Program-made: the position numbers and the translations under genes
Shown here: piece after piece, positions 1-33,312 of the stretch
How the letters are laid out: each line of letters opens with the position of its first letter
Position numbering within the stretch: the stretch's first letter is position 1
Origin: a virus
Reading direction: 5' to 3' (one strand)
Length of the DNA stretch: 39,779 nt
IMG/VR virus record: IMGVR_UViG_3300031236_000021
Coordinates: 1 to 39,779 of that record
The notes under the pieces: model-generated
Told to the model about the DNA's origin: nothing
Seen by the model: only the letters and a program-made list of their open reading frames with translations
Databases searched by the model: none

Positions 1-74
1 GATGCCGTGCGCTCTGATACCGCTCGCGGAACGCTGACTAAGATCCGAGGATACCCGCTCTTGTGGTGGCAGCC

Positions 75-760
75 CTCGGGAGGTCTCACCGATCGGTAAG
101 GTCTCTCGGGGCGGACTTCGCAGCGTGGCTCCTCGCGGAGGGGCTCCGCTCGGGAGGTCTCACCGATCGGTAAGGTCTCTCGGGGCGTCGCCTTCGGCCG
201 GCTCACGCTCGAGGACTGGGCCCTCGGGAGGTCTCACCGATCGGTAAGGTCTCTCGGGTGATGGGCGCGGACGAGCATGCGGGTCTCCGTGGTAAGGGCT
301 CGGGAGGTCTCACCGATCGGTAAGGTCTCTCGGGGCGCAGCCGGAGTAATTGCCCGGCACAAGCGCACCGCGGCTCGGGAGGTCTCACCGATCGGTAAGG
401 TCTCTCGGGACGAGATGACGACCCACGGGAGACTACCAAACGCGCGCTCGGGAGGTCTCACCGATCGGTAAGGTCTCTCGGGAGCGGGGGCGACGGCGGC
501 AACCCGGGCGGTTACGGCGCTCGGGAGGTCTCACCGATCGGTAAGGTCTCTCGGGGGCCCCCTGACCCTTCCGCGGTCATGAGGGCGGGAGCCTCGGGAG
601 GTCTCACCGATCGGTAAGGTCTCTCGGGTCGCCCGACGCTCGGACGATGGGCTCGGGAGGTCTCACCGATCGGTAAGGTCTCTCGGGAGCTCAAGGCGAC
701 GAGGGGCAGTCTCGGGAGGTCTCACTCGGGAGGTCTCACCGATCGGTAAGGTCTCTCGGG
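75..760. CRISPR. CRISPR-like array, 10 perfect 36-base repeats, no cas genes
   Basis: Ten identical 36-base repeats start at 75, 149, 223, 299, 374, 447, 520, 593, 652 and 725. Intervening sequences are unique: 38, 38, 40, 39, 37, 37 and 37 bases for the first seven, then 23 and 23. A truncated 14-base repeat (711-724) abuts the last full repeat. Each repeat has a central perfect palindrome, ACCGATCGGT, flanked by two directly repeated AGGTCTC blocks, with CTCGGG at one end and TCGGG at the other. The form fits a CRISPR array. Against it: the ends are not the usual GTTTC/GAAAC type, the outer blocks are direct rather than inverted, two intervals are only 23 bases, and no cas gene is in the window. 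An iteron, operator or partition-site array is the main alternative. Confidence 0.5.
711..724. repeat. Truncated array repeat
   Basis: The first 14 bases of the 36-base array unit occur here and run straight into a complete unit at 725, without a spacer. This looks like a recombination or slippage scar at the gene-proximal end of the array. The 59-base spacing from 593 to 652 and from 652 to 711 is the same, so the last units may have been copied by tandem duplication rather than by spacer acquisition. Confidence 0.8.
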
Positions 761-762
761 AT

Positions 763-769
763 GAAGGAG
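763..769 (+). promoter_or_regulatory. Ribosome binding site deciding start at 778
   Basis: GAAGGAG lies eight bases before the ATG at 778, which favours that codon over the in-frame GTG at 769 that overlaps this site. It begins only two bases after the last array repeat ends, so the 5' end of the message probably contains or abuts array sequence. Confidence 0.6.
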
Positions 770-777
770 TGCGAGTG

Positions 778-2361
778 ATGCTCACGCCAGTGAACCAGAC
801 CGACGTGGACGACGGCTACGACGCGCTCGCGCTGACCGTGCGCGCGAGGATCGCGAACGTCACGCAGTCCCAGGAGCCGGTCTTCGCGACGAGCGTCGAC
901 CCGAAGGCGCTCTGGGGCCACTTCCTCCACAACCTGCCCGAGGATCGGCGCCAGCACTACAACTGCCGGGCGTGCGCCAAGTTCGTCGAGACCTACGGCG
1001 GTCTCGTCACGATCGACGAGTCCGGCCGCGAGTGGCCGCTCGTCTGGTCGCTGTCCGTTGCAGTCCCCGAGGCGTTCAGCCGCGCGTGGGCGGACCTCGC
1101 CGCGCTCTCGGTCGCCGGGTCCGTGACCAGCGTCTTCCTCTCGCCCGACGCCGTCTGGGGCCAGCCCGAGACGCCCGACAAGAAGCGCGGCGTCACTTGG
1201 CGCCACCTCTCCGCCGCGAACTTCCGCGCCTTCCGCCACCCGCTCCTCACGGCGGGGCAGAAGATGGCCGAGCTGCGCGAGGAGCGGAAGATGCTCCTCG
1301 GCGCGCTGCGCGACTTCCCCAAGTCGCTCGTCGACGAGGCGGTGCGCGTGCTTCGCTCGGACGCGCTCAGTCGCTCCGAGAAGGCGCTCGCAGTCGCGGA
1401 GTGGTTCGCGCAGCGCCACGGCGAGAACTCGGGCCAGACCTGGCGCGCCGTCGCGGCGGCACCCACCGGATTCTGTCACGTCCGCTCGACCATGATCGGC
1501 ACGCTGCTCGAGGACTTGAAGTCGGGGCTCGGCTTCGAGGCCGTCTCGCGCCGCTGGGGCGAGAAGATGCACCCCCTCCAGTATCAGCGCCCGCAGGCTG
1601 CCCCGAGCGTCGATCAGGTCCGGGTGGCGGAGGAGACCGTGGAGAAGCTCGGCGTCGCGCGCTCGCTCAAGAGGCGGTTCGCGCGGCTCGAGGACGTGCC
1701 GGAGTCGGCTCGGATCTGGCAACCGAAGCCCGCGGCTCCTTCCCAGGCCGGAGCGTCCGGCGTCTTCGGCCACCTCCTCCACGCGCAACAGGCGCCCAAG
1801 CTGGTCCTGCCGTCACAGAGGATCACGTGGGACAAGTTCCGGCGAACCGTCCTCGAGACGGCGCGAACGCTCGAGGTCGAGTGCCCGCGAGTCGGCGCCT
1901 ACTACGGGCTCGTGACGGCGGAGGATCCCGACGCGCCGCCGATCCTCCAGTGGGACGGAGACCCGCGTTGTCCCGTCTCGTGGTATTTCTACCCCGGCGG
2001 ATCGGCCGCCAGCCGTTGGGGGATCTCGGCGGACTGGCAACCCGTCGCCGCCGTCTTCGAGTCGCCGCACCAGTGGCACCACCCGGAGCGGTTCCGGCAC
2101 CAGCCGTGGAACGCCCTCTTCGCCGTCTCGGCCATGCACGACCAGGAGCACCACGGGCGCGGCCTCGCGCTGTTCCCGGAGAACCTCCGCGCCGAGCTGC
2201 ACGGGATCAGGTCCGTCGTCGAGGCGCACTCGAAGACCGGCACGATCACGGGCGCCGGGACGGCGAACGGGCTCGCGTTCGCGTTCGGCGGCACGCATTC
2301 GAGCGAGGTCACGGTGCGCGTCGACGGCACGGACCGCTACACGATCGACAGGAGGGACTGA
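778..2361 (+). CDS. Conserved phage hypothetical protein
   Basis: A 527-residue protein of unknown function. Near the N-terminus a CxxC pair (NCRACAKF) follows the segment HFLHNLPEDRRQHY, possibly a metal site. The middle is helical and charged. The C-terminal third has a motif reading FPENLRAELHGIRSVVEAHS followed by a Gly/Thr-rich stretch, a pattern I recall from uncharacterised phage proteins, without known activity. The ATG at 778 is chosen over a GTG at 769 because of a well-spaced GAAGGAG. It is the first gene after the repeat array, reads away from it, and is followed three bases later by a small basic gene. It has no signal peptide or membrane segment. It could be an early-expressed protein; no function is assigned. 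Confidence 0.85.
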   Translation: MLTPVNQTDVDDGYDALALTVRARIANVTQSQEPVFATSVDPKALWGHFLHNLPEDRRQHYNCRACAKFVETYGGLVTIDESGREWPLVWSLSVAVPEAFSRAWADLAALSVAGSVTSVFLSPDAVWGQPETPDKKRGVTWRHLSAANFRAFRHPLLTAGQKMAELREERKMLLGALRDFPKSLVDEAVRVLRSDALSRSEKALAVAEWFAQRHGENSGQTWRAVAAAPTGFCHVRSTMIGTLLEDLKSGLGFEAVSRRWGEKMHPLQYQRPQAAPSVDQVRVAEETVEKLGVARSLKRRFARLEDVPESARIWQPKPAAPSQAGASGVFGHLLHAQQAPKLVLPSQRITWDKFRRTVLETARTLEVECPRVGAYYGLVTAEDPDAPPILQWDGDPRCPVSWYFYPGGSAASRWGISADWQPVAAVFESPHQWHHPERFRHQPWNALFAVSAMHDQEHHGRGLALFPENLRAELHGIRSVVEAHSKTGTITGAGTANGLAFAFGGTHSSEVTVRVDGTDRYTIDRRD

Positions 2362-2364
2362 GCC

Positions 2365-2631
2365 GTGAACCGCCGCATCGCCCGCAAGATCGCCAAGCGG
2401 ATCAACGCCGGAGCCCAGTGCCCGCGTCGCCACGGTCGCGGCTACACGGAGGCCACGCGCTACCGGGCGCATCACAAGCTCGTGCCGCACCAGACCGGTG
2501 GCGTCGTCGAGTCGTTCGACTACGGGCGAGGTCTCGCGGAGATCCTATGGGACTTGTGGTGGAGCGCGTGGAGGGCTACGGCTGGAAGCGCAAGCTTACC
2601 CCGTGAGCAAGTCGCACATCGCCCCGAGTAG
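2365..2631 (+). CDS. Small basic hypothetical protein
   Basis: An 88-residue protein starting at GTG 2365, with AGGAGGG about nine bases upstream inside the end of the previous gene. The N-terminal half is very rich in Arg, Lys and His (RRIARKIAKR, then RRHGRGYTEATRYRAHHK), suggesting nucleic-acid contact. The C-terminal half has a Trp-rich stretch (LWDLWWSAWRA) that could be amphipathic. No family was recognised. Its 3' end overlaps the convergent ATP-grasp gene by 36 bases, so the exact C-terminus is less certain than the N-terminus. It probably forms one unit with the upstream 527-residue protein. Confidence 0.6.
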   Translation: MNRRIARKIAKRINAGAQCPRRHGRGYTEATRYRAHHKLVPHQTGGVVESFDYGRGLAEILWDLWWSAWRATAGSASLPREQVAHRPE

Positions 2632-3558
2632 CTCGCCCGGCTCGAAGGCGTCGGCGGTCCACAGGAACAGGCCCTGCACGTTCGTCTCCAGCGCCACGTA
2701 GCGTCCCTCCGGCGTCACGATCAGGTCCGCAGTCCCCATGGCGAGCCCGAGCGCCCGGTGCCACGCGACGATCTTAGCCTCCACGTCGGCAGGGAGGGCG
2801 TGCCGCGTATGGCGCACCGAGCAATAGGCGTGGCGGTAGTCGACGAGTGCCCGCGGGTCGTTCTGCGAGTCGATCTCGCACGCGAACACGCGGTCCCCGA
2901 GCACTGTCGCACGGATCTCGCAGCGCTTCGCGATCTTCTCCTGAAATATGCCAGGGCAGTGGGCGACCGCCGTGATCTGCGGGAAGCGCTCGGGCGTGAT
3001 CTCGGAGGTGAAGATCGCTGGGAGCTCGCCTGGTGGGTCGGCCGGGGTCCGCTGCCTCGATGCGAAGGCCTTGTAGATGCTCGGTTGCTCAGCGCAGAAG
3101 GCGAGCGCCTTCACTGGATCGTTCGTGATGAGCGTGCGAGGTATCTCGAGGCCGCACGCGCGCGCGACCTGAATCTGGCGGATCTTGCCCCATCCGGCGT
3201 CGGTCAGCGTCGCGGCCGCGATCGGGTTCACCCATCGTCGGTCCTCGAGGGCCTGGGCGAGGCCGACGAGGCACTGTAGCGCCTCGTTGACCGCCCACCA
3301 TCGATCCGTGAGCGGAGGTGGGTCGGGATGCGGCCACCGCCGTAGCCAGACCGTCTCTGCGTCGTCGAGGTCGAAGCCGCCAGCGGCGCGATCGATGACG
3401 GCCGTCATGTCGGCTCCCGCATCGAAGCGCACGGAGAGGCGTGCGCGCTGGGGGAGCTCGGAGAGGTCGAGGACATCCACGCGCTTACCGCGGCGGCGTA
3501 GTTCGGCCGCTACGGGCGCGACGTGGTCGTCCGTGGGGCTTCCGATGATGAGGATCAT
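2596..3558 (-). CDS. ATP-grasp ligase, graspetide synthetase (MvdC/MvdD) type
   Basis: A 320-residue ATP-grasp enzyme of the kind that makes ester or amide crosslinks between side chains of peptides (microviridin/graspetide synthetases). Visible landmarks in order: VWLRR at 70-74, NP at 111-112, K125 and Q128, GLEIPRTLITNDP at 136-148, K163, IFQEKIAK at 204-211, CEIR at 213-216, IDSQ at 229-232, DYR at 240-242 (a D-x-R motif, which in graspetide synthetases contacts the precursor), DLIVTPEG from 278, and metal-site E291 and N293. Length fits the family. The start codon overlaps the stop of the 1,180-residue fibre-like gene as ATGA, so the two are translationally coupled, pointing to that protein as the likely substrate. 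RimK-like glutamate ligation is the alternative; the VWLRR and IDSQ...DYR motifs favour graspetide chemistry. Confidence 0.85.
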   Translation of the reverse strand: MILIIGSPTDDHVAPVAAELRRRGKRVDVLDLSELPQRARLSVRFDAGADMTAVIDRAAGGFDLDDAETVWLRRWPHPDPPPLTDRWWAVNEALQCLVGLAQALEDRRWVNPIAAATLTDAGWGKIRQIQVARACGLEIPRTLITNDPVKALAFCAEQPSIYKAFASRQRTPADPPGELPAIFTSEITPERFPQITAVAHCPGIFQEKIAKRCEIRATVLGDRVFACEIDSQNDPRALVDYRHAYCSVRHTRHALPADVEAKIVAWHRALGLAMGTADLIVTPEGRYVALETNVQGLFLWTADAFEPGELLGAMCDLLTG

Positions 3559-6500
3559 ATTGAGAACCGGAACACTTGGCCGCTCGCCCCGGCAGCTCCG
3601 GCCGTCGGGGCGTCGGGTCCTAGGAATCCGGCCGGGTTGTAGGCGGCACTACCGGCGCCGCCTGTCGCTGTGATGGTCCCCGCCGAGATCGAGGAGCCAG
3701 ACGCGCCGTAGACCAGGATCACGAGGCCGCCCGCGCCGCCACCGCCTCCGCCCGAGTTACTGCTGTCGTTCGTGCCCTCGAGCGTGCCGCTACCGCCGAA
3801 CGCGGCGCCGCCGTTGGCCGTGATGGCGGCCCCGGAGTCAACGATCAGCGTGCCCACCGCGAGGTAGACGACTCCGCCGCCGCCTCCGCCGGACCCGCTG
3901 TAAATGAAGCTGCCGGATGGGACGGTCTGCCCGAGAGTGCACCCCCCATTGCCCCCTCCCCCCCCGCCGCGGAACTGCGATAGGATCCCCTCAACGAAGC
4001 TCCCACCGAGTTGAGCCCACGTGAGGCCGTGCGGCGATCCGACGGCGCCCGTGGTCGGCGTCGACGTGCCGCCCGCGCCTCCGGCCGACGTTCCGCCGAC
4101 CTTGTAGGCCTGGCCGCCAGCTCCGCCCGCGCCACCCCATCCGTTCGTGGCGTTGCCGCCAGCGACCCCGACCTCGGTGGCGTTGGCGCCTGAGATCAGC
4201 CAGCCGTTCTCGCCGTTCGCGCCACCCCCGAGATCGCCGGCTGGCGCACCCGCTCCGCCAAAGTTCGGCGTCGTGGCTGAGGACCCGTTGTTGAAAATCA
4301 GCCCCGAGGTTGGCAGCGTGCACGTGCCGGTGCAAAAGATCATGAAGCCGGCCGTATTGAGCAGGTATGGGACGCCGGCGCCGTAGGTCGCCGGGAACGT
4401 CATCGAGGTGTAGTAGACGGTGCGCGTCAGCGTATAGACGCCGCTCGCGTAGGAGCAGCCCGCGACCGCGCTACCGTTGAAGTCCGCCGCTCCGTCGCTG
4501 CCGTCGCCCCAGAATCCTCCGGCCGTCGTCGTGCCATTCGATCCCCAGGTGACGGTGCCGTCGCCGTTCGATATCGGGACCTGGCCATTGGTGCCGTCCT
4601 TCCCGTTGCATAGCTCGCCGCCCCAGGCGTAGGTGTTCTGCGCCGTGTAGTTGAGGAGCAGCGCCGCTTCGTCGGAGAAGGACCCGGTCGCCCCGGCGTA
4701 GTCCCACTCGCACGTCGTAGTCGATCGGTTGAGCCAGACGAAGCCGTTCTTGGGGAGGCCGTTCTGTCCAGGCGTCCCCACCGAGAGCGACGCCGGGAAG
4801 ACGGCGCAGACCGTCGTGGGGATCGTATCGGGCGTCGGGCCCTGGGTGCCGGCCTGGATCGCCTTGATGTCCTGGTTGGGGGCGTGGAGCGCCCACCCGC
4901 CGCGCCCGACCCCGCCAGAATACTGCCCGACTCCGTCGCCTCCGCCCTCCGAGGTCTCCGCCGTGCCGCTCGACTGATCGTTGAACGCGGCGAGGACGCC
5001 CGAGATCGGCGTGGGCGCGTTGTATGCGGCGAGTTGTGCCGGCGAGAGCCCGGTCGTGTATCCGCGGGTGTCGGGTCCGTTGCAAGCGACCGCGCGCGCG
5101 AGGAGGCCCGAGGATGCGACCTCAAGCGGCGATCGGACGAAGCCACGGTCGAAAAAGATCGTGGGGCCATTGCTTGGCGTGGCTCCGACCCCATTTATTA
5201 CATACCCTGGGCCATAGTTAATGTCTTGGATGACCTTTACCAATCTAGGGATCGTGAACCCGTTCGACCGAGGGAGATAACCTCCGACTCCACCGCCTCC
5301 ACTCGCTGGGTTGTCGCCGCCAAGCCCACCCAACCCGCTACCACCAACCTGATAACCTCCGACTCCACCGCCTCCACTCGCTGGGTTGTCGCCGCCAAGC
5401 CCACCCAACCCGCTACCACCAACCTCTGATCCCGTGGCCACCGCAACGCTAGGAGGATTGCCAAGCGTGAGACCGCCGAACGTCGTGAGCGGAGGCAGCG
5501 CTACGTAGTTGGATGTCGTGTAGCTTCCGCCGGGATTGGATGTCGTGTAGCTTCCGCCGGGACCGACCGTTGGATTGAGTTCTCCGCCCTTGATGTCTCC
5601 GAATTCGAAAACGGGCTTGGTGCCGTCGGCGAGTGCCGCCGCCACTGGCTTGCTACCAGCAGCGTCGTCTGCGGATCCGTATTCCTTCCCTTGATCCTTA
5701 GCGGATCCGTAGTCCTTACCCCCGTCCTTGCCAGCGTCCTTACCGCTTGCCGATCCATCCTTTCCGCTGGCTCCGTAGTCCTTGCCCCCGTCCTTGCCGC
5801 CGTCCTTCCCTCCATACTTGCTGGGCGTCCTGTATGGAGTCGTCACGTCAAACGGGACCGCGGTCTCCCACTTCCTGAGCCCGACGAGTTGCCCCGAGAG
5901 GAAGGGGTGTTGGTCGTTCAGGTCGTATCGGAAGAGCGTCTCGACAAGGAGCGGGCCGCCGGCCGTGGTGGGCACCCACGTGCCGGCCGTCTTGAGGGGC
6001 GCGTCGAACCCGTCACCGTCGATCGGCTGGAGGACGTTCCAGTGCGCGGCGTTGACCGGCTCTGCGTCCTGCGTCGTCGCGATCAGGTGGATGTCCGACG
6101 CCTGTCCGACTGAGTGGCCGCCGAAGCCGCGGCGCGACGTGACGCCGAAGACGCTCTGCACGCCCTGCGTCGAGGGCGGCGGCCCGCTTGTCGTCGTGGG
6201 CGTCGCGCCGGTCACCTCGCTAGGATCGGGCGCGTCGCCCGTGCCGGTCGCCGTGCGGTTCGTGGGCGGCGGCGGCGGCTGGCCGGCGACCTGGTCGACG
6301 ATCACGCCGTAGCCGGCCTGCCCGTCCACGTCGAGGCCGATCTGCCACGCGATCCCGCCCGAGAGCGGCGGCGTCTTTGAGTTGCCGGGCGGGACGCCGC
6401 CGAACGGGAGGAGCCCGGTGAGCGGCAGACGGTAGATCCGGTCCGACGACTGGAGCCTGGCGCGGCGCAGCGGGTCCAGCGCGCCGGCCGGCGTCACGTC

Positions 6501-7097
6501 GTGCTCGACCGTGCCGAGCGAGCCCTCCTGCGCGCCGCCATTCCAGACCGCGACGAGCTGCGTCGACGCCGGCACCGCGGCGATCTGCTGCTGCGTCGTG
6601 TCCGAGAACGGCACGAGGACGACCTGCGTTCCGGCTGGCAGCTGGCCGCCCGACACGGAGACCTTCTGCTGCAAGACGCCCGTATCCGCGATCCAGTCTC
6701 CGGGCGTCGTCGGATCCTCGTGGATCGCCGGCAGCGCGTAGACGCTCCCCGCGACCTGTGACTTGTAGGGGTCGGAGGGCGTGCCCGAGGGCGCCTCCTG
6801 GATCACGCCGGCGAACGCTCCGCCCCAGTAGGGCGCGAGGCGCTGCTGGCCGTTGGGGTCCGCGCCGCCCGACGCATACCACACGGCGCGGTCGATCTCG
6901 TAGCCGACCGAGTTCGGCTCGTCCGGCACGAGGCCGCCCGGTCCGTCGCAGATCAGTAGGAATCCGGTCCCCGGGTCGCGTCCGTGCGAGCGCGCGCACT
7001 TCGTGACGAGGATCTGGTCCGACGGCCACGTCGTCCCTGGCAGCGGGTGGTGCTGCGCTGCGTAGACGCCCTCCTCGTCGACGATCAGGTAGGCCAT
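3555..7097 (-). CDS. Large glycine-rich tail fibre-like protein with internal Lys-Asp repeat segment
   Basis: A 1,180-residue virion-type protein. Residues 1 to about 420 form a non-repetitive N-terminal region, probably for tail attachment, with a proline/threonine-rich linker near 280-315. Residues about 427-480 are a low-complexity run with eight KD and one KE dipeptides separated by Gly, Ser, Ala and Tyr. Two copies of GGSYTTSN follow near 512-529, then a perfectly duplicated 25-residue Gly-rich unit at 558-607. The C-terminal half resembles phage fibres, with Gly-rich blocks such as GGGGGGAGGLVILVYG and several cysteines. The 427-650 segment uses visibly more A/T-rich codons than its flanks. 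The gene lies last among the tail genes and overlaps the ATP-grasp gene by 4 bases. A receptor-binding fibre is the best guess; its modification by the ATP-grasp enzyme is inferred. Confidence 0.75.
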   Translation of the reverse strand: MAYLIVDEEGVYAAQHHPLPGTTWPSDQILVTKCARSHGRDPGTGFLLICDGPGGLVPDEPNSVGYEIDRAVWYASGGADPNGQQRLAPYWGGAFAGVIQEAPSGTPSDPYKSQVAGSVYALPAIHEDPTTPGDWIADTGVLQQKVSVSGGQLPAGTQVVLVPFSDTTQQQIAAVPASTQLVAVWNGGAQEGSLGTVEHDVTPAGALDPLRRARLQSSDRIYRLPLTGLLPFGGVPPGNSKTPPLSGGIAWQIGLDVDGQAGYGVIVDQVAGQPPPPPTNRTATGTGDAPDPSEVTGATPTTTSGPPPSTQGVQSVFGVTSRRGFGGHSVGQASDIHLIATTQDAEPVNAAHWNVLQPIDGDGFDAPLKTAGTWVPTTAGGPLLVETLFRYDLNDQHPFLSGQLVGLRKWETAVPFDVTTPYRTPSKYGGKDGGKDGGKDYGASGKDGSASGKDAGKDGGKDYGSAKDQGKEYGSADDAAGSKPVAAALADGTKPVFEFGDIKGGELNPTVGPGGSYTTSNPGGSYTTSNYVALPPLTTFGGLTLGNPPSVAVATGSEVGGSGLGGLGGDNPASGGGGVGGYQVGGSGLGGLGGDNPASGGGGVGGYLPRSNGFTIPRLVKVIQDINYGPGYVINGVGATPSNGPTIFFDRGFVRSPLEVASSGLLARAVACNGPDTRGYTTGLSPAQLAAYNAPTPISGVLAAFNDQSSGTAETSEGGGDGVGQYSGGVGRGGWALHAPNQDIKAIQAGTQGPTPDTIPTTVCAVFPASLSVGTPGQNGLPKNGFVWLNRSTTTCEWDYAGATGSFSDEAALLLNYTAQNTYAWGGELCNGKDGTNGQVPISNGDGTVTWGSNGTTTAGGFWGDGSDGAADFNGSAVAGCSYASGVYTLTRTVYYTSMTFPATYGAGVPYLLNTAGFMIFCTGTCTLPTSGLIFNNGSSATTPNFGGAGAPAGDLGGGANGENGWLISGANATEVGVAGGNATNGWGGAGGAGGQAYKVGGTSAGGAGGTSTPTTGAVGSPHGLTWAQLGGSFVEGILSQFRGGGGGGNGGCTLGQTVPSGSFIYSGSGGGGGGVVYLAVGTLIVDSGAAITANGGAAFGGSGTLEGTNDSSNSGGGGGGAGGLVILVYGASGSSISAGTITATGGAGSAAYNPAGFLGPDAPTAGAAGASGQVFRFSI
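5276..5425 (-). repeat. Perfect tandem duplication, 2 x 75 bases, inside the fibre gene
   Basis: Bases 5276-5350 and 5351-5425 are identical, giving two copies of a 25-residue Gly-rich unit containing GLGGLGGDNPASGGGG. Perfect identity at the DNA level implies a recent duplication. The unit sits in the A/T-richer part of the fibre gene. Confidence 0.95.
5509..5562 (-). repeat. Perfect tandem duplication, 2 x 27 bases, inside the fibre gene
   Basis: Bases 5509-5535 and 5536-5562 are identical and encode two successive nine-residue units, GGSYTTSN plus one residue. The Ser/Thr cluster would supply hydroxyl groups of the sort used as donors in ester-linked graspetides. Confidence 0.95.
5660..5820 (-). 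repeat. Lys-Asp repeat segment of the fibre gene
   Basis: This stretch encodes residues about 427-480 with imperfect repeats of the form GGKDGGKDYG and SGKDGSASGKD, ending KEYGSADD. Codons vary between copies (GGC/GGG/GGA, GAC/GAT, one CAA and one GAA), so selection on the peptide rather than recent slippage seems to maintain it. Alternating amine and carboxylate side chains are what an amide-forming ATP-grasp ligase could join. Confidence 0.85.
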
Positions 7098-7104
7098 GCG
7101 CCTC

Positions 7105-9357
7105 CTAGGATATGTTGCGGAACAGGAGGTTTCTACTCGCCTGCGACATGAGGCCCTCGACCGTGGGCGGCGGGACGACGCCGCGAGCCCTGAGAGTTGT
7201 GAAGCACCCGTCGGCGGTGAACGTGTGCTGGACCTGCTGGAGCGAGCCCACGGGCATGACGGTGGGCGAGAAGCCGATCGTCATGTCGCCCTCGTAGTGG
7301 TCGAGCATGGTGTTCATGTAGCAGGCGAACACCGAGACGGCGAAGTCGGCGAGCTCCGTCTGGTTCACGGGGACGAGCCGAGTCGGATCGCCCTTGAGCG
7401 GCCCCGTCGTCTGGAAGCAGGAGAGGAGGTCGCTCCGCTGCGTGTCGTCCCACGCGAACCGCGCGAGCGCCGACGCGGGCATGGGGTGGAACTCCTTGGT
7501 CGGGGCTCTCGGGGTCACGGCGTTGGCCGGAGCGCCGAGCCGATCGAGCGCCTGTGCGACCGTGACCTTGAACGGGTGGAGCGCCTTGGGTCCGTTGGGG
7601 CCGGCGGGGATCGCGGAGAAGATCAGCGCGACTCGGTGCGTGAGGAGCTTCTGCGCCTGAGACCAGAAGGCGAACGTCGTCCCGTGGTAGAGCTCGCCGA
7701 TCGCGTTCGACGGCAGGTTCCAGACGAGGCCCATGTGGACGTCGGCCGCGTGCTTCACCTTCGTCATGTCCTGCGCCATGCCGCTGAAATAGAAGACGCC
7801 GTTCGTCGCGTCGTAGACCTGCGTCTGAAATGGCGCGACCGTCGCCTGCGAGATCGGGAACGGGGAGACGTTGTAGGGCCCCGGGTTCTCGGCGTAGGTC
7901 TTCTGGCCGCTCGGGAAGACTTGCGTGTTCGGGTTGTTCGGCGGCACGGAGTTTACGATCCACCCGAAGGCGTCGTCCGTCGAGAAGCCGGGGCCGCGCG
8001 GGCGCTGGACGTGGTCCGCGTAGACGGTCGCCGTCTGGTAGGTCCCTGTCGCGGCGTCGAGGAGCCCCACGCGCTCCGCTTTGATCGAGCCCGGGAGGCA
8101 CTGACGAGCGAAGATCGGGTTCAGCTTGTAGAGCGTGCGGAAGTAGTTCCTGAGCGCCTGGCACCTGAGCGCCCAGGACGCGTTCGCGCCGACGCCCGTG
8201 CCGTGGTCCGAGACGTAGGTGCCCTCGAGCATCTCGGAGAGGAGCGGCGACGCGGACCGGACTCCGCCCGGGCCCTGGAGGAGGAGCTTCCTCGAGATCG
8301 GGGTCCACGCTTGCGGCGTCCCTGGCGGAGCGTCGTTGAGCGAGGCTATGGCCTGGAGGAAGGCGCTGGTCGGGACGAGCGTGTTCTGGACGCTTGGGTC
8401 CGTCTTCGACGGGTAGGGGATCGACTGGTCCGTGACCGGGATCACGTTGATCATGGTCGGCGTGTTGTCGGTCCCCCAGGTCACGTCGTCGCCCACCGTC
8501 GAAGCGTTGCCGGTAGGTCCGGGCGGTCCCTCCCACGAGTCGGCGCGAACCTCGACCCGGCGCGTGAGGCGCACGAGGCCGGCGGTCGGCGCCCGGTTCG
8601 CCATGGAGATCCAGCGGAGCAGGCCCTTCCATTCGAGCGAGTAGGCGCTGACGATCGGGTCCACGGTCGACTTCTCGGCGCCCAGGAACGCGTTCACGAG
8701 CTCGATCGCGCCGTCGTCCGCGACGCGGATGTCGAGCCCGCCGAGCGCCCCGAGCGCCTGCGCGATCGCCATGTGGCCCATGGCGTCGACGAAGACGTCG
8801 TTCGGTATGAAGGACGTGCGCTGGTTCGCGAGGAAGCGGAGCGTGATCGGCGGGAAGTCGTGGCCGGTGCAGGCCTGTTGGAGCACGTCTTGTGCGATCT
8901 CGAAGGCGTTCCAGGGCGTCTGCTCCTTCTTGAGCGACGAGGGAACGAAGGTCCAGTTCTGGATCGTGGGCGGCTGCGCGGCCTGCGGCTGGAGGTCGTT
9001 CTGGAGCTGGCGGAACGTGCCCGACTGCGCCTTCAAGTTGTAGTTGGAACGGACCTGCCCGAACGGCAAGTAGAAGCGCACGTCGGTGAAGATCACGCCC
9101 CGGATCAGCGCGTCGTTTGTCGCCTCCTCTCCGACGACGTAGACGCGCTGGATCGTCTTCGTCTTGCCCGAGGCGTCGGTCATGGTGATCGACGTCTCGC
9201 GCGGGCCGGCGAGGATCTTGGCCGCGTCCTGCACCGAGAAGAGCCACGTGATGCTCGGGGCCTGCACGCCCAGTGTCTGCGTCCACGTCTTGGGTCCGAA
9301 GCCGTCCGTGTAGCAGACGACGTTACCGACCTTGAGCGAGGCGACGGTCGCTGTCAT
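7105..9357 (-). CDS. Tail/baseplate structural protein, function inferred from position
   Basis: A 750-residue protein without signal peptide or membrane segment. The first 130 residues are a beta-rich region (TWTQTLGVQAPSITWLFSVQDAA, then a segment reading GKTKTIQRVYVV and RGVIFTDVRFYLPFG). The middle is helical, with a long stretch about a GHDFPPITLRFLANQRT segment, and the C-terminus ends in another mixed region. No enzymatic motif was found. It lies between the 724-residue tail protein and the fibre gene, where hub or baseplate components usually sit, and is separated from them by only a few bases. Baseplate hub or distal tail protein is inferred from gene order only. Confidence 0.7.
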   Translation of the reverse strand: MTATVASLKVGNVVCYTDGFGPKTWTQTLGVQAPSITWLFSVQDAAKILAGPRETSITMTDASGKTKTIQRVYVVGEEATNDALIRGVIFTDVRFYLPFGQVRSNYNLKAQSGTFRQLQNDLQPQAAQPPTIQNWTFVPSSLKKEQTPWNAFEIAQDVLQQACTGHDFPPITLRFLANQRTSFIPNDVFVDAMGHMAIAQALGALGGLDIRVADDGAIELVNAFLGAEKSTVDPIVSAYSLEWKGLLRWISMANRAPTAGLVRLTRRVEVRADSWEGPPGPTGNASTVGDDVTWGTDNTPTMINVIPVTDQSIPYPSKTDPSVQNTLVPTSAFLQAIASLNDAPPGTPQAWTPISRKLLLQGPGGVRSASPLLSEMLEGTYVSDHGTGVGANASWALRCQALRNYFRTLYKLNPIFARQCLPGSIKAERVGLLDAATGTYQTATVYADHVQRPRGPGFSTDDAFGWIVNSVPPNNPNTQVFPSGQKTYAENPGPYNVSPFPISQATVAPFQTQVYDATNGVFYFSGMAQDMTKVKHAADVHMGLVWNLPSNAIGELYHGTTFAFWSQAQKLLTHRVALIFSAIPAGPNGPKALHPFKVTVAQALDRLGAPANAVTPRAPTKEFHPMPASALARFAWDDTQRSDLLSCFQTTGPLKGDPTRLVPVNQTELADFAVSVFACYMNTMLDHYEGDMTIGFSPTVMPVGSLQQVQHTFTADGCFTTLRARGVVPPPTVEGLMSQASRNLLFRNIS

Positions 9358-9360
9358 GGG

Positions 9361-11535
9361 TTAGCCCGTCACGAAGGACGGCGCGGGCGTGCCGCCCGAG
9401 TCGCCGCCTCCCGTCGTCACCGGGATCCCCGGGCTCGATCCGCCTCCGCCGGTCGTGCTGGATCCGCCGCCGGCCGTCGCGACGTTCACGGCGACCCAGA
9501 GCAAGTCCTCGTTCAGCTCCGCGTAGGTGAGCGGCTGCGTCTGGATCCCCTGTTGCGGGATCCCCTTGATCCGGTTCGTGACCTTGGGCGTGGCGTTCCT
9601 GAGCGGAACCCAGCCCGGCCCGAGCGACGGCGGCGTCACGAAGCGCGTCAGGTCGTAAGTCCCGGTCTTGTAGATCGCCTGGATCACGCGCGTCATGGTC
9701 GAGCGCGGGAGGCCCTGCTGCACGAGGTAGGCGTGCGGCGTCCCCGCGAACGCCGCGTCCGCGCGCACGCCGAGATCGTTCACGTTGCCCTGCGTGTAGA
9801 GGAAGTTGACGACGTTCGCCGAGTAGGCGCGGATCTGCCCGTCCGCCGTGACCTGGTTCTTCGTCCGGTCCGTCTTCTCGGAGAGAATCACGAGCTCCGA
9901 GCCCTGGCCGAGCGCGAACTCCTGGACGAGGACTTGGTAGAGGAGCGGCTTCACATGGCTGACCCAGTAGGCGTAGCAGTCCGTGACGTTGTCCTTGTCG
10001 AAGTAGGCCTGGTAGTTGAAGAGGAGCGTCACAGGCTTGACGGCCGGCGTAGCCGAGGCCTGCGTCCCCGGACCGCTGCCCGCGATCGTCCCCGGGTTCG
10101 GGAGACTGCCCGAGGAGTTATCCTGCGTCGTGAGCGGTCCCGGGTTCGACGCCTGGGCGCTCTGGGGCGCCTCGCCATTGGGACCGAGGAGCGACGAGAC
10201 CGCGGGCGGCTCCGGTGTGTCGTCGAGCTCCTGGAACGAGACGCCGACGACGATCGTGTCCCCGCGTATGTTGGGGTCGTTGAGGTAGGGCGCGGCGGCG
10301 AGCGACTGCTGCTGGATCAGCTCCTGGTAGACGAGCGTGTAGTCGACCCGGTCCTGCTGCTCCTTGTATTCGACCGTGGGCGTCGTGAGGAGGTAGCAGT
10401 CCTGGCCGACGGTGAGCGGACCGCCCTGGCTCGCCGCGAGATTCGGGAGCGTGGTCGCCTCGGCGTAAGCCTGTCCTCCGTTCGTCGAGTCGAGGAAGTT
10501 CGCGAGCGCGCTGTTCGCCGACCCATACTGCGAGCCAGCCATGGTCCGCACGCAGGAGCCTCGGATCGTGACCGTCCGCATCTTCTGCGGGCCGTAGAAA
10601 ATGTTCACGTCGGAGTCGAGGCGCCCGAAGACGTGCTGGCCGTAGGTGCGCGTGAACCTGAGCACGGAGAGGTCGTTCGGGTCCGACTCGTCGCGCGCCG
10701 TGATCGCCCACTGACCGACGATCATGGACGTGCTGCCCGACGGTCCCGAGAATGCTCCGTTGAGCGTCAGCGACGTGTCGGACGACGGCGGCGGCGAGCC
10801 CGAGACGGTGTAAGACGTGCCTGGCTGCGACCCGAACCAGACGACGGTCCCCGGCGCGATCTGGAGGAACGAGGTCCCCGAGCCCGTGACGCTCGTTCCG
10901 GCGACAGTGACGAGGCCGCCCACGGGCCCAGCGTTGGCGAGGAGCGAGAGCCGGTAGGCGACGTAGGAGTCGATCTGCGAGAGGAACTGGTTCCGCGCCA
11001 GCGCCGACGGGACCTGAGTCCAGACGCCAGAGACGGTCGCGACGAGGCGCTGGTTCAGGTCGAAGTGGAAGGACACGTCGACCTGCCGCCGACCCGCCGC
11101 CGGGCCGTAGGTGTCCGTGTAGTTCGGAGGGCGCCCGACCTTGACGCGGAACTCATAGCCCCGCGCCTCGCCCGAGTTCGGGAAATCGCCCAGCTTCTGG
11201 CACGTGGGCTCCGCGGAGAAGCCCATCTGCTCCTGCGTCGCGCCGTCGGTCGTCGACGGGTCGAAGATCTCGACGGCGTTGCCGACGCCCCACGAGACGG
11301 TCAGCTTCTGGTAGCGCATGCGCAGCGCCGACTCGACGGCCTGGCACGCGGCGTTCAGCGCGTTGAAGTCCGTCGTCGCGTTGCCGGACGGCACGACGCG
11401 CACGACGAAGCGGCAGACGTATTCGGCGTCGTCCTCGGTCGTGACGAAGTGGAACGCGTCCAGCACCTCCGTGCCGTGCGTCGGCGCCGAACCGCCGATC
11501 GTCTCCGAGCCGTAGACGAAGTAGTCGGGTATCAC
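9361..11535 (-). CDS. Large tail structural protein with inserted beta module
   Basis: A 724-residue protein starting at a GTG that overlaps the stop of the tape-measure-like gene (GTGA). Residues around 200-272 hold a beta module (VTVAGTSVTGSGTSF...GTSYTVSG...SDTSLTLNGAFSG) that recurs in the 255-residue connector-like protein at 16680-17447. A Gly/Ser/Thr-rich linker region lies around 440-500 and the last 50 residues are again Gly/Ser/Thr/Pro-rich, so the C-terminus is probably flexible. No catalytic motif or transmembrane segment is visible. Position directly after the tape-measure candidate and before the hub candidate suggests a tail-tip, baseplate or distal tail component. Confidence 0.7.
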   Translation of the reverse strand: MIPDYFVYGSETIGGSAPTHGTEVLDAFHFVTTEDDAEYVCRFVVRVVPSGNATTDFNALNAACQAVESALRMRYQKLTVSWGVGNAVEIFDPSTTDGATQEQMGFSAEPTCQKLGDFPNSGEARGYEFRVKVGRPPNYTDTYGPAAGRRQVDVSFHFDLNQRLVATVSGVWTQVPSALARNQFLSQIDSYVAYRLSLLANAGPVGGLVTVAGTSVTGSGTSFLQIAPGTVVWFGSQPGTSYTVSGSPPPSSDTSLTLNGAFSGPSGSTSMIVGQWAITARDESDPNDLSVLRFTRTYGQHVFGRLDSDVNIFYGPQKMRTVTIRGSCVRTMAGSQYGSANSALANFLDSTNGGQAYAEATTLPNLAASQGGPLTVGQDCYLLTTPTVEYKEQQDRVDYTLVYQELIQQQSLAAAPYLNDPNIRGDTIVVGVSFQELDDTPEPPAVSSLLGPNGEAPQSAQASNPGPLTTQDNSSGSLPNPGTIAGSGPGTQASATPAVKPVTLLFNYQAYFDKDNVTDCYAYWVSHVKPLLYQVLVQEFALGQGSELVILSEKTDRTKNQVTADGQIRAYSANVVNFLYTQGNVNDLGVRADAAFAGTPHAYLVQQGLPRSTMTRVIQAIYKTGTYDLTRFVTPPSLGPGWVPLRNATPKVTNRIKGIPQQGIQTQPLTYAELNEDLLWVAVNVATAGGGSSTTGGGGSSPGIPVTTGGGDSGGTPAPSFVTG

Positions 11536-12216: not shown

Positions 12217-12495
12217 TCACCTCTCCCCGCGAAGAAACCGGCGCCCCGCGACGGTCAGCGGATCCTCGGCGCGCGGGGCCTCCTGGCGCATGGCGCTGAT
12301 CGCCCGCGCGAGGCGATCGGCGCGCTCCTGCTCGACCGTCTCCGCGGCGACCCCGAGGGCGACGTGATCCGAGTCCGAGAGGCGCATGAAGCGGTCCAGG
12401 TCGAAACGCCCGCCCTGGAGGAGGAAGCGGCGGAAGAACCCGACCCGGTTCGGGTCAGGGAGCTCAGCGGCCCTCGTCTCGGCAGACTCGCTCAT
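12217..12495 (-). CDS. Small tail assembly chaperone-like protein
   Basis: A 92-residue acidic and helical protein. The ATG at 12495 is preferred over an upstream in-frame codon because it overlaps the stop of the 197-residue gene as ATGA. It contains a stretch reading FFRRFLLQGGRFDLDRFMRLSDSDHVALG, followed by a helical Arg/Glu/Ala-rich C-terminus. Its size, and its place between a tube-like protein and the tape-measure-like protein, match tail assembly chaperones, but no diagnostic motif or frameshift site was recognised. The role is therefore positional. Confidence 0.6.
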   Translation of the reverse strand: MSESAETRAAELPDPNRVGFFRRFLLQGGRFDLDRFMRLSDSDHVALGVAAETVEQERADRLARAISAMRQEAPRAEDPLTVAGRRFLRGER

Positions 12496-13085
12496 GCGCT
12501 CAGGTTCCCCAAGAGGTCGCATGAAAGGTCCCGGAGCGACGCGTCCATGCCGACCTGGGCAATGAACAGGTGCTCGAGCACGGCGTCGACTCGGAGGTCG
12601 GCCTCGAGCTTGGGCGCGAGCATGAACGACGGCGCGTAGACGAGGACCGACGGCGCGCCCTCGTAGTCGTCCGCGACGAACAGGAGCTCGCCGTTGCCGG
12701 ACCCGAGCGCCGTGGGTGGCAGCACCTGCCCCGGCGCGACGTTCCGCCCCGGGAGCGGCAGCGACAGGACGTTGGCGCCCTGATAGCCTCCCGCGCTCGT
12801 GGACGACGAGGCGTAGAGGAGGTTCAGGATCGTCTTGTCGAACTGCTCGAGCACGGCGACGAGCGCCGCCGAGTAGCGCCCGCCATATGTCGAAGCCTTG
12901 TCGCGACCGTAGGCCTCGGAGTTCCCGAAGGCGTAGGACTGCTCGCGCACGAGCCGCGCGCGCGTCGTGAATCCGACAGGGACGCCGCCATAGGGGTAGG
13001 TGCCCGACGATATGCCCGCCTGCGTCGGCCCGATCACGAACCGACCGGCGAGCTTGAGCACCTGCGTCGGGTCGAGCCCCGCCAT
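12492..13085 (-). CDS. Candidate tail tube protein
   Basis: A 197-residue protein beginning MAGLDPTQVLKLAGRFVIGPTQ. The ATG at 13085 shares one base with the upstream stop (TGATG), so the longer upstream reading is rejected. The N-terminal part (GRFVIGPTQAG...GGVPVGFTTRARLVREQSYAF) and the C-terminal part (LRVDAVLEHLFIAQVGMDASLRDLS) have the mixed beta/helix look of tail tube subunits. It is followed by the chaperone-like and tape-measure-like genes, the usual order after a tube gene. No sheath gene was recognised nearby, so a contractile tail is not supported. Assignment is by position and general appearance. Confidence 0.5.
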   Translation of the reverse strand: MAGLDPTQVLKLAGRFVIGPTQAGISSGTYPYGGVPVGFTTRARLVREQSYAFGNSEAYGRDKASTYGGRYSAALVAVLEQFDKTILNLLYASSSTSAGGYQGANVLSLPLPGRNVAPGQVLPPTALGSGNGELLFVADDYEGAPSVLVYAPSFMLAPKLEADLRVDAVLEHLFIAQVGMDASLRDLSCDLLGNLSA

Positions 13086-16679: not shown

Positions 16680-17447
16680 TCACCACCCCCAGTCGCCCTC
16701 GACGCCGCCGCCCGCGGGGCTCGCGTCGCTCGGTCCGGGCGAGAGGATCGATATGTCGCCCCAGCGTTCCGTGTCCGTCGAGGGGAGCCGCGCCGGCCCG
16801 ACCGACGGCGTGAAGACGCTGTCGGTGTAGGGCGCCGCCCATGCGCCGTCGCCCCTGTTGTGCAGCACCATGTCGAGGCGCTTGCGAGCGAGGCGCCACG
16901 CCGCCTCGACCTCAGCCTCGGGCCAGGGATTGCCGCGGCCGGGGTCGTAGAGGTAGGCGACGACGAGCGCGACGCCGGCCCACACGTCGCGGTTGAGGGT
17001 GGGGTTGCTCCCCGGCGTCGACGTGCTCTGCGTCACGTCGTCGTAGACGAGGTCCGTCGCGTCCTGGAACTCCGCCTGCGCGTCGAAGACGGCCTGCTGG
17101 AGCGCCTGGTAGTTGATCGACGGCAGAACGGCGCCGACGCTCGCGGCCGTGACGCCCGCGTAGGCGCTGTAGAGCGTGAGCGCCGTGTCGCTCTGGACGC
17201 TCGCCACGACGTAGTTGCGGCCCGGCTGGCTCGCGAACTGAATCACGATCCCGCCGAACGTCTCGACGAGGCCCTGGAGGCCGCCCGTGACGAAGTTCGT
17301 CCCGGAGCCGACGACGGACGCGGAGCCGCCGGTCACGGTCACCGTGCCGGGCAGCGCCGTCGCCTTGATCCCGCCCGTGTTGTCGGCGTTCGAGAGCGCG
17401 ACCAGCCTGGCGGACGAGAGCCGGAGCATGCACTCGATGATCAGCAC
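16680..17447 (-). CDS. Head-tail connector-like protein with inserted beta module
   Basis: A 255-residue protein starting at GTG 17447, preceded by a strong GGAGGTGA. Residues about 31-102 carry a beta module (VTVTGGSASVVGSGTNF...GRNYVVASVQSDTALTLYSAYAG) also present in the 724-residue tail protein. The rest is helical (NYQALQQAVFDAQAEFQDATDLVYDD...RDVWAGVALVVAYLYDPGRG...EVEAAWRLARKRLDMVL), which matches the general look of gp36/DUF1320-type head completion proteins that bind below the portal. The family call is tentative; the location between capsid and tail genes supports a connector. Confidence 0.6.
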   Translation of the reverse strand: MLIIECMLRLSSARLVALSNADNTGGIKATALPGTVTVTGGSASVVGSGTNFVTGGLQGLVETFGGIVIQFASQPGRNYVVASVQSDTALTLYSAYAGVTAASVGAVLPSINYQALQQAVFDAQAEFQDATDLVYDDVTQSTSTPGSNPTLNRDVWAGVALVVAYLYDPGRGNPWPEAEVEAAWRLARKRLDMVLHNRGDGAWAAPYTDSVFTPSVGPARLPSTDTERWGDISILSPGPSDASPAGGGVEGDWGW

Positions 17448-30485: not shown

Positions 30486-30992
30486 TTAATCAACTCCCGA
30501 GGTCAGCTCGTCCACGCGTATGATCGGCACCGCCGTCGTCGTCCCGACGGAGAAGTTGATCGCGGAGGGCGTCACGCCCGACACGTTGCCGATCGTGCTC
30601 GTCGCGCCGCCGGCTCCGCTCTGAGTCACCGACCCCGGCTGCGCGCTGTTCCGAGTCCCCCAGACGAACGTGAACGTCTGACCGCCGGTCAGCGCCGTCC
30701 CCGAGTTCATGGCGGAGGTGAACGTGTGCGTGCCGTCCGTCTCGACGATCGAGAACGTGCTCGTCGTCGCGAGGACGACCGAGATCCTGATCGCGCTGGC
30801 GCTCGTCTTGAGCGTCAAGTTCGTCGTGAAGATCGACGTGCCGCCCGTGACGCTGGGTATGTTCCAGCCGCTCGCGATCGGTATGAAACCACCGCCGCTC
30901 TGCGCGTGGACCGGGCGCGCCTCGCGCAGGTCCCTCAGCGCCGTGAAGCACATGAACGCGACGACGGACGCGGCGAGCCAGTTCCTGCGCAT
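30486..30992 (-). CDS. Small surface-like protein with an export-type N-terminus
   Basis: A 168-residue protein from ATG 30992, with GGAGGT shortly upstream. The first 30 residues read as a signal peptide (MRRNWLAASVVAFMCFTAL, with AQ at a plausible cleavage position), and the rest is Thr/Ser/Gly-rich beta sequence (GGTSIFTTNLTLKTSASAIRISVV). It ends two bases before the fibre-like gene, so the two are probably co-translated and may interact. The copy of the TAGACT motif at 31012-31022 lies just upstream. No family was recognised. Confidence 0.65.
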   Translation of the reverse strand: MRRNWLAASVVAFMCFTALRDLREARPVHAQSGGGFIPIASGWNIPSVTGGTSIFTTNLTLKTSASAIRISVVLATTSTFSIVETDGTHTFTSAMNSGTALTGGQTFTFVWGTRNSAQPGSVTQSGAGGATSTIGNVSGVTPSAINFSVGTTTAVPIIRVDELTSGVD

Positions 30993-31092: not shown

Positions 31093-32595
31093 TCACGCCG
31101 CCGCTCCCATCTTGTCGCCGACCGCGCGACCGCCCTCGCCGATCGGCGCCTCGTCTCCGTCGGGTTCGGACCAGGACTGCCCGCCGTCGACGCCGAGGCC
31201 CTGCACGACGGGCTCCGGCCACTGGAGCGCCTGCTTGAGCGCGTTCGGCGGCGACAGCTTGAAGATCGTATAGAAGTCCTCGAGCCGGACCGGCACCTTG
31301 AGCTTCCACGCGAGCTCGAAGACCTTGAGCATCTGCTCCACGTCGCGCTGCTCGCGGCCCTTGAGCTGGAGTCGCGAGAGACCGCAGTCCGCGAGACCGA
31401 GCTCGGCGAGGTTCTCCTGGTTGTGCTCGACGAGGAAGCGACCAACCGTGTCCGACCACGTCTCCTCGAGCGGCGTGCGCAGGTAGGCGACCTGATCGTC
31501 CTGCGAGCCCTCCTCGACCTTGGCGCTCGAGTAGCCACCGTCGCCGTCGCCCGCGCCCGTCGGCTGGAGCGCGGCGAGGATCCTCTGTCTCATGGCGTTG
31601 TCGAGATACTTCGTCCACTCCATGAGCCAGCGCATGCCCTCGCTGGGCATGTCGACCATGTTGATCGTCGAGCCCTCGTCGAGCGCGATGAAGTTCTCGG
31701 CGCGCATGGTGCGGACGGCCTGCACCGTCTGCTGGAGCACGGACGCCTGGTTCGCACCCTTCGCCATGCCGTCCCGAAGCGCCTTCGCCGTGATCGTGAG
31801 GAAGCCCTGCCCGAACCGCTCCGCCGCCTGCATGGCCCAGCGGATCAGCTGCGACTTCATCCAGCTGTAGGCGAAGAGTTCGTCGGCGAGCGCGTAGCCG
31901 TAGCCGAACCCCCATTCGCGCGTGTCCGAGACGTGCTGAATCCAGTGGTCGAAGGGCGCGATCTTCTCCAGGTCCGTGTAGTAGCTCGCGCGCGCGTTCG
32001 ACAGAAAGCCGGCGTGGAACTGCCACTTGAAGCGACCGAACGGCCCGGCGTCCGCTCCGCGCTGCGTGATCTTCGCCTCGCCGTCTGCCGCCGGGACGCT
32101 CGCGGGCGAGCCGTAGGGTCTCGCCGACACGGCCTCCCCGTCGCCGAGATCCTGCACGAGCCGAAAGCGCCGCTTGTCCGCGTCGCGCACCTTCGCGACG
32201 ACGGTCCACCACCGCGGCTTGTCGTCGCCGATCGTGAGCAGCCGGCGCTCGGGGTAGAGCCGCCCCCACGTGCAGCCGAGGTGCGCGGAGCGCGAGAGGT
32301 TGTAGAGGCTCTGCGCGAAGCCGCGCTGCTCCTTCGTCAGATCCTCCATGACCCGCGCGTGGAGGCGCCCTCGGTCGTCGTCCTTCTTCGGCTTCCAGGT
32401 GAAGTCGTGCCCGACGATCGCGCGCTGGAGCACGTCGCATGCGCCAGAGATGACGAGGTCGCGGGACTGCTTCTCGTAGACCTCCGGATCCTGCGCCAAG
32501 CCCCAGGATGGGTCCCAGAGGTAGATCTGCGCCAGGAAGGCCGCCGTGTTCGTAGCATAGGTAATTTGCTGGGCCGACCCGAGGACCGGGAACAT
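31093..32595 (-). CDS. Portal protein (Mu Gp29-like, DUF935)
   Basis: A 500-residue protein from ATG 32595 with the features of the DUF935/Gp29 portal family: an N-terminal region with DVLQRAIVGHDFTWKPKK, the segment WWTVVAKVRDADKRRFRL, a central FGQGFLTITAK...AENFIALDEGSTINMVDMP, then SEGMRWLMEWTKYLDNAMRQRILAALQP and EHNQENLAELGLADCGL. The portal forms the ring at the packaging vertex to which TerL and connector proteins bind. It follows the large terminase, separated by an inserted cargo cassette. A partial second copy of its N-terminus lies at 33175-33312. Confidence 0.85.
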   Translation of the reverse strand: MFPVLGSAQQITYATNTAAFLAQIYLWDPSWGLAQDPEVYEKQSRDLVISGACDVLQRAIVGHDFTWKPKKDDDRGRLHARVMEDLTKEQRGFAQSLYNLSRSAHLGCTWGRLYPERRLLTIGDDKPRWWTVVAKVRDADKRRFRLVQDLGDGEAVSARPYGSPASVPAADGEAKITQRGADAGPFGRFKWQFHAGFLSNARASYYTDLEKIAPFDHWIQHVSDTREWGFGYGYALADELFAYSWMKSQLIRWAMQAAERFGQGFLTITAKALRDGMAKGANQASVLQQTVQAVRTMRAENFIALDEGSTINMVDMPSEGMRWLMEWTKYLDNAMRQRILAALQPTGAGDGDGGYSSAKVEEGSQDDQVAYLRTPLEETWSDTVGRFLVEHNQENLAELGLADCGLSRLQLKGREQRDVEQMLKVFELAWKLKVPVRLEDFYTIFKLSPPNALKQALQWPEPVVQGLGVDGGQSWSEPDGDEAPIGEGGRAVGDKMGAAA

Positions 32596-33178: not shown

Positions 33179-33312
33179 GTCTGGCCTCCCATCGGCGGCG
33201 CGACCTCGAGTGGACGAAGGACGATTGAGATGACGAGGTCGCGGGACTGCTTCTCGTAAACTTCCGGATCGCTGGCCAGGGAAAAGGACGAGTCCCCCGT
33301 GATCGGAAACAT
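33175..33312 (-). pseudogene. Portal N-terminal remnant (45 residues)
   Basis: A short frame from ATG 33312 that begins MFP, as the portal does, and contains SDPEVYEKQSRDLVIS, matching the portal segment QDPEVYEKQSRDLVIS. Residues between are deleted and the sequence then diverges. Its stop overlaps the cargo gene start as ATGA, so it may now act as a leader frame for translational coupling of the cargo gene. Confidence 0.8.
33227..33272. repeat. Second copy of a portal-internal segment
   Basis: About 46 bases closely matching 32447-32492 within the portal gene. It shows that the portal remnant is a deleted duplicate rather than a chance similarity. Confidence 0.9.

What the first reader, a model, noticed from the sequence alone, without database searches (positions are those of the whole stretch)
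2596..7097. Phage fibre gene translationally coupled to a graspetide-type ATP-grasp ligase: a possible self-crosslinking virion fibre
Seen: a 1,180-residue fibre-like gene overlaps by ATGA a 320-residue ATP-grasp gene whose motifs (VWLRR, NP, GLEIPRTLITNDP, IDSQ...DYR, E291/N293) match graspetide synthetases. Known: these enzymes join Ser/Thr/Lys side chains to Asp/Glu side chains in short precursor peptides. Inferred: the fibre is the substrate and carries the core internally, in its Lys-Asp and Ser/Thr repeat region. Crosslinked rings in a fibre would give mechanical or protease resistance. I know of no described phage virion protein modified this way, though I cannot search.
Basis: partly seen in the sequence, partly recalled or inferred. 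Interest (0 to 1): 0.9.

Follow-up and report, generated by a model that had tools for sequence, protein, structure and literature searches.

The report
Phage tail operon with graspetide-type ligase
A tailed-phage genome fragment carries, directly behind and overlapping its tail-fibre-like gene, an intact enzyme of the family that ties peptide side chains together (graspetide synthetases), in the position where other members keep their small substrate gene; it may cross-link the fibre, but nothing here proves that the fibre is the substrate.

Summary
Window 2596-3558(-) encodes an intact 320-aa ATP-grasp ligase overlapping by ATGA the 1180-aa Gly-rich, fibre-like gene 3555-7097(-), and phage genes lie on both sides. 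The ligase belongs to the graspetide-synthetase (MvdD/MdnC, TIGR04187) fold and sequence family. It keeps all 16 residues invariant in a 34-sequence alignment, and its model (pLDDT 90.6) matches MdnC best (Z 31.4; RimK 23.2). It is a long, isolated branch, scores below the curated NCBIfam cut-offs, and has no close viral relative. In 88 relatives surveyed, the ORF closely preceding the ligase was small in 75 (35-200 aa); those that could be read are precursors. Here that slot holds the fibre, and no leader-bearing precursor was found in the window. This supports the fibre as substrate by position only. Against it: no known leader motif in the fibre; 4-bp overlaps are routine in this genome; GGKDGGKD repeats occur in 12 other viral records, none with a ligase match; the fibre's Lys-Asp spacing (mostly i+5) is not the KxxxD that a related enzyme, CorB, cyclises. 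Best reading: an active graspetide-type ligase acting on a co-expressed tail protein, most likely the fibre (confidence 0.4). Main rival: a moron acting on a precursor outside the contig.

The parts
2596..3558 (-). 320-aa ATP-grasp ligase of the graspetide-synthetase (MvdD/MdnC, TIGR04187) family; all 16 residues invariant in 34 aligned relatives are kept, including R73, K163, R216, D240, R242, D278, E291, N293; departs at near-invariant W241Y, P294V, Q297L
3555..7097 (-). 1180-aa fibre-like protein, 20.4% Gly, no detectable relatives; overlaps the ligase start by ATGA
5664..5819 (-).
5601..5615 (-). fibre residues 495-499 PVFEF, the only match in the fibre to the loose leader motif Phhx(1,2)h; 1.6 matches expected by chance, so not evidence
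5509..5562 (-). perfect 27-bp x 2 tandem repeat in the fibre gene (PGGSYTTSN x 2)
5276..5425 (-). perfect 75-bp x 2 tandem repeat in the fibre gene (VGGSGLGGLGGDNPASGGGGVGGY)
3558..4262 (-). Gly-rich C-terminal part of the fibre (residues about 946-1180)
7105..9357 (-). 750-aa protein, next gene upstream in the tail operon, no relatives found
9361..11535 (-). 724-aa tail-region protein; one stretch resembles the tail-fibre-like gene 16680-17447
769..2361 (+). 530-aa phage protein (phrog_1735, 1.4e-91; matches in 484 phage records), convergent; shows that phage DNA continues beyond the ligase

Best explanation
The last gene of this phage's tail operon is a working enzyme of the graspetide-synthetase family. 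It uses ATP to phosphorylate an Asp or Glu side chain and joins it to a Ser/Thr (ester) or Lys (amide) side chain of a target protein. The target is a tail protein made from the same operon, most likely the fibre-like protein immediately upstream, whose gene sits where relatives keep their precursor. Intramolecular or inter-chain links would then stabilise the flexible fibre before or during assembly. Shown here: enzyme family, intact catalytic residues, gene order, absence of a recognisable precursor in the window. Inferred: activity, substrate, site (the Lys-Asp stretch is the best candidate but weak) and benefit to the virion.
For: Family and fold: TIGR04187 4.7e-56, MdnC 1.6e-28, model pLDDT 90.6; graspetide synthetases fill the top ranks, Z 26.7-31.4, above RimK 23.2. 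All 16 invariant residues kept. Position: of 88 relatives with upstream DNA, 81 have a same-strand ORF ending within -60..150 bp of the ligase; 75 of those are 35-200 aa, and the two over 500 aa are a near-identical pair of an unrelated gene with a 97-98 bp gap. Those read individually are precursors, several overlapping the ligase by 8-13 bp. In the window that slot is filled by the fibre, and none of the ORFs judged coding looks like a precursor. Phage origin: phrog_1735 gene beyond the ligase; codon use inside the range of the phage genes. Chemistry precedent: CorB, also TIGR04187, makes five Lys-Asp isopeptide bonds in a 22-kDa precursor (PMC13097080); ThfB cyclises whole proteins and cross-links pre-assembled chains (PMC12291112); a leader still works when placed C-terminal to the core (PMC13003496).
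Against: No leader motif of either type seen in relatives is present in the window. PVFEF in the fibre is a chance-level match. KD repeats occur without a ligase match in 12 of 12 other viral records. The fibre's Lys-acid spacing is i+1/i+5, not KxxxD. 4-bp gene overlaps are routine in this phage. The tree end branch is long (1.13), so specificity may have drifted. No second phage with the pair was found.
Confidence: 0.4

Rival explanations
1. A moron: the phage carries a graspetide synthetase that acts on a small precursor encoded elsewhere in the phage (off this 39.8-kb fragment), unrecognised in the window, or supplied by the host. The product would be a secreted or signalling peptide that benefits the lysogen or infected cell, and the place behind the fibre is only a convenient late-operon end.
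For: All viral-record relatives that could be read are such cassettes, e.g. Leptospira phage KF114876 with an unannotated 106-aa precursor overlapping the ligase. The window is a linear record that may be a fragment. The ligase is the last gene of the minus-strand run, 235 bp from the convergent phage gene 769-2361, a usual site for morons (general knowledge).
Against: No precursor-like ORF, leader or core was found in the window, whereas relatives nearly always keep a small ORF next to the ligase. A ligase without its precursor nearby would be an exception in the family.
Confidence: 0.33
2. The ligase modifies another protein: a different virion protein of the operon (such as the 750- or 724-aa proteins) or a host protein, in the manner of RimK, by a single ligation or amino-acid addition and not by a cross-link.
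For: RimK-like and R2K ATP-grasp enzymes occur in phages and are thought to modify host proteins (PMC7824862; BFVD hits). The ligase is divergent, with P294V, Q297L and W241Y at near-invariant positions.
Against: It resembles graspetide synthetases clearly more than RimK in sequence (RimK profile E = 0.15) and structure (Z 31.4 against 23.2).
Confidence: 0.2
3. The gene is a recent or decaying acquisition without function in the virion.
For: No second phage carries it, and it has a long branch.
Against: Reading frame and all 16 invariant residues are intact, codon use fits the phage, and it is not close to any bacterial donor (at most 35-39% identity).
Confidence: 0.07

Closest known systems
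Corallotide synthetase CorB (graspetide group 15, TIGR04187; PMC13097080)
   Same: Same profile family; acts repeatedly on a large substrate and forms Lys-Asp isopeptide bonds
   Different: CorA is a dedicated precursor with KxxxD sites and oxygenase partners; the phage fibre is a 1180-aa presumed structural protein with i+5 spacing and no partner genes
Microviridin macrocyclases MdnC/MvdD (PDB 5ig9)
   Same: Fold, catalytic residues, pre-ATP-grasp domain; best structural match
   Different: Small precursor with PFFARFL leader; no such precursor found here
Fuscimiditide synthetase ThfB (PMC12291112)
   Same: Shows in engineered constructs that a graspetide synthetase can cyclise whole proteins and cross-link chains
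   Different: Engineered substrates that carry leader and core; its natural substrate is a peptide
Graspetide cassette of Leptospira phage vB_LalZ_80412-LE1 (KF114876)
   Same: Ligase relative (29% identity over the aligned part) on a phage genome
   Different: Has a canonical 106-aa precursor beside it; not in a tail operon
HK97 capsid chainmail (own knowledge) and Gram-positive pilus isopeptide domains (PMC12617251)
   Same: Covalent side-chain links that harden a structural protein
   Different: Autocatalytic, no ligase; the survey of intramolecular isopeptide bonds found none in the viral structure set BFVD

Membership tests
Graspetide synthetase (ATP-grasp, MvdD/MdnC type) | ATP-grasp fold with MvdD pre-ATP-grasp domain | tested here: met
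   Pfam PF21068 29.3 bits (gathering 27); Foldseek and VIA top ranks are all graspetide synthetases
Graspetide synthetase (ATP-grasp, MvdD/MdnC type) | Conserved catalytic and nucleotide-binding residues | tested here: met
   16 of 16 invariant columns kept in 34 sequences
Graspetide synthetase (ATP-grasp, MvdD/MdnC type) | Score above a curated NCBIfam subfamily cut-off | tested here: not met
   TIGR04187 190.3 against 350; TIGR04184 160.7 against 475; TIGR04185 149.8 against 425: a relative outside the named subfamilies
Graspetide synthetase (ATP-grasp, MvdD/MdnC type) | Makes side-chain ester or amide links | not testable with these tools
   needs protein chemistry
Canonical graspetide gene cluster | Short precursor with leader motif next to the ligase | tested here: not met
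   no leader hit in six frames, no precursor among the ORFs judged coding; applies to the window only, the phage genome may be incomplete
Corallotide-type Lys-Asp substrate | Repeated KxxxD sites | tested here: not met
   no KxxxD in the repeat stretch; spacing is i+1 and mostly i+5
RimK-type ligase | Closer to RimK than to graspetide synthetases | tested here: not met
   RimK profile E 0.15; Z 23.2 against 31.4
Phage tail fibre | Homology or fold of a known fibre | tested here: inconclusive
   no matches; single-sequence model of the N-terminal 420 residues unusable, pLDDT 32; placed by operon position and composition only

The most novel reading that the evidence does not exclude
A phage virion fibre that is covalently cross-linked through side chains by a dedicated graspetide-type ligase encoded in the tail operon: a large structural protein in place of a small peptide precursor, recruited to the enzyme without a recognisable leader.
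Probability: 0.3. Interest if true: 0.85.

Novelty: new variant of a known kind. Interest (0 to 1): 0.58.

Why it matters
Graspetide synthetases are described as makers of small peptide products. A member built into a virion operon would extend the family to structural proteins, give phages an enzymatic way to harden fibres, and offer a natural tool for cross-linking proteins that may not need a short leader. The question of whether viral structural proteins are enzymatically cross-linked becomes testable with two genes. No paper in the searched library describes such a case, and a survey of intramolecular isopeptide bonds found none in BFVD (PMC12617251).

Tried and rejected
Close relatives of the ligase, fibre, 750-aa protein and terminase in viral contigs: none. 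Ligase in bacterial genomes by single sequence: none. The 724-aa protein in 396 genomes of the Blastocatellia relative's phylum and 195 of the Archangium relative's: none, which shows little without a positive control. Fibre, 750-, 724- and 576-aa proteins against 50,697 phage records: none. Leader profiles YDxxxQ and PFG[VIL]E[FY] against six frames: nothing above noise, although the first also picked out ORFs directly upstream of the ligase in relatives not used to build it (L049, L056, L057, L091). PVFEF as leader: chance. 101-aa protein 12217-12522 with GFFRRFL, reminiscent of microviridin PFFARFL: no proline, no core, 8.7 kb away; set aside. AlphaFold of fibre residues 1-420 from single sequence: unusable. 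Phage record MT835913, a tblastn hit, looks like bacterial chromosome (neighbouring autotransporter-like, cytosine methyltransferase and integrase-like ORFs) and was not counted as phage.

Full report
What is there. The window is an IMG/VR virus record of 39,779 bp with terminase, Mu-type portal, head and neck genes and a run of tail-region genes on the minus strand. The last two genes of that run are a 1180-aa Gly-rich protein (3555-7097) and a 320-aa ATP-grasp ligase (2596-3558), overlapping by ATGA. A convergent phage gene (769-2361, phrog_1735, found in 484 phage records) lies beyond the ligase, so the ligase is flanked by phage DNA on both sides; its codon use lies within the range of random same-size samples of the phage genes.

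The enzyme. Sequence profiles place it with graspetide synthetases: TIGR04187 4.7e-56, MvdD 4.7e-47, MvdC 9.8e-44, all below the curated subfamily cut-offs, and the Pfam MvdD pre-ATP-grasp domain above its cut-off. The best PDB match is MdnC, 1.6e-28. An AlphaFold model from 35 sequences (pLDDT 90.6) matches MdnC at Z 31.4 and other graspetide synthetases at 26.7-30.9, with RimK at 23.2. All 16 residues invariant over 34 aligned relatives are kept; it departs at three near-invariant ones (W241Y, P294V, Q297L). In a tree of 95 ligases it is a long isolated branch (1.13), with Blastocatellia enzymes nearest by path and 35% identity to an Archangium enzyme; other myxobacterial enzymes reach 36-39% over the aligned part. 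It is therefore a graspetide-synthetase relative outside the named subfamilies.

The context test. Relatives were collected from viral contigs, phage records and bacterial genomes. Of 88 ligases with enough upstream DNA, 81 have a same-strand ORF ending within -60 to 150 bp of the start; in 75 it is 35-200 aa, in four 213-254 aa (three of these are repeat-bearing precursors), and in two, near-identical, an unrelated gene over 500 aa with a 97-98 bp gap. Only some of the small ORFs were read one by one. Those were precursors, with leaders such as KPFGVEFLE or RYDPEVQLWV and Thr/Glu/Asp cores, several overlapping the ligase by 8-13 bp. In the window the same slot is held by the fibre. This is the strongest argument that the fibre is the substrate, and it is positional only.

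The arguments against. Leader profiles find nothing in the window. The loose Phhx(1,2)h leader motif (PMC8939145) occurs once in the fibre (PVFEF, 495-499), where 1.6 would be expected by chance. The Lys-Asp stretch is a real enrichment, but GGKDGGKD occurs in 12 other viral records, with no ligase match in any of them (some of these hits lie in very short ORFs and may not be coding), so it can exist for other reasons. Its Lys-to-acid spacing is +1 and mostly +5, not the KxxxD cyclised by CorB (PMC13097080). Gene overlaps of 4 bp are common in this genome.

Feasibility. CorB, also TIGR04187, makes five Lys-Asp isopeptide bonds in a 22-kDa substrate; ThfB cyclises whole proteins and cross-links pre-assembled chains in engineered constructs; a leader works C-terminal to the core. 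So a graspetide-type enzyme acting on a large protein is chemically plausible. A survey of intramolecular isopeptide bonds found none in the viral structure set BFVD, and no paper in the searched library links graspetide synthetases to virions.

Verdict. Observation confirmed; enzyme family well supported; substrate claim plausible but unproven (about 0.3 for a cross-linked fibre, 0.4 for the wider reading that a tail protein of the operon is the target). The main rival is an ordinary moron whose precursor lies off the fragment. The decisive experiment is a two-gene co-expression with mass spectrometry.

Noticed in passing
window 63-761: Ten copies of a nearly perfect ~36-nt direct repeat (CTCGGGAGGTCTCACCGATCGGTAAGGTCTCTCGGG) spaced mostly 73-76 bp, directly before the phrog_1735 gene; CRISPR-like array or iterons/partition sites (internal palindrome ACCGATCGGT), no cas gene seen, no exact match in viral contigs.
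   Followed up: partly
window 33175-33312 (-): A 45-aa ORF (MFPITGDSS...DPEVYEKQSRDLVIS) repeats the N-terminal part of the portal protein 31093-32595: a partial portal duplication.
   Followed up: no
window 27754-30483 and 30486-30992 (-): Two Gly/Ser/Thr-rich proteins with signal-peptide-like N-termini lie between the portal and head genes, an unusual place for exported proteins; the larger resembles the fibre only in composition.
   Followed up: partly
window 5276-5425 and 5509-5562: Perfect 75-bp and 27-bp tandem duplications inside the fibre gene: recent expansion of Gly-rich repeats, or an assembly effect.
   Followed up: no
L003:9505-9822 (KF114876.1, Leptospira phage vB_LalZ_80412-LE1): Unannotated 106-aa graspetide precursor (three Thr-rich, acid-ended cores) overlapping the annotated RimK-like ligase: a canonical graspetide cassette on a phage genome.
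   Followed up: partly
L002 (MT835913.1, 'Bacteriophage sp.'): Record labelled phage but looks like sphingomonad chromosome: its precursor region scores identically to the Sphingomonas parapaucimobilis locus L074 in the leader search and it carries a repeat-bearing graspetide cassette.
   Followed up: partly
window 12217-12522 (-): 101-aa tail-region protein with a GFFRRFL segment resembling the microviridin leader PFFARFL; probably coincidence.
   Followed up: no
L013 (Blastocatellia) 4778-10161: Cluster of three ligases with five small precursors sharing PFG[VIL]E[FY] leaders but very different cores, followed by a peptidase-ABC transporter-like gene.
   Followed up: no
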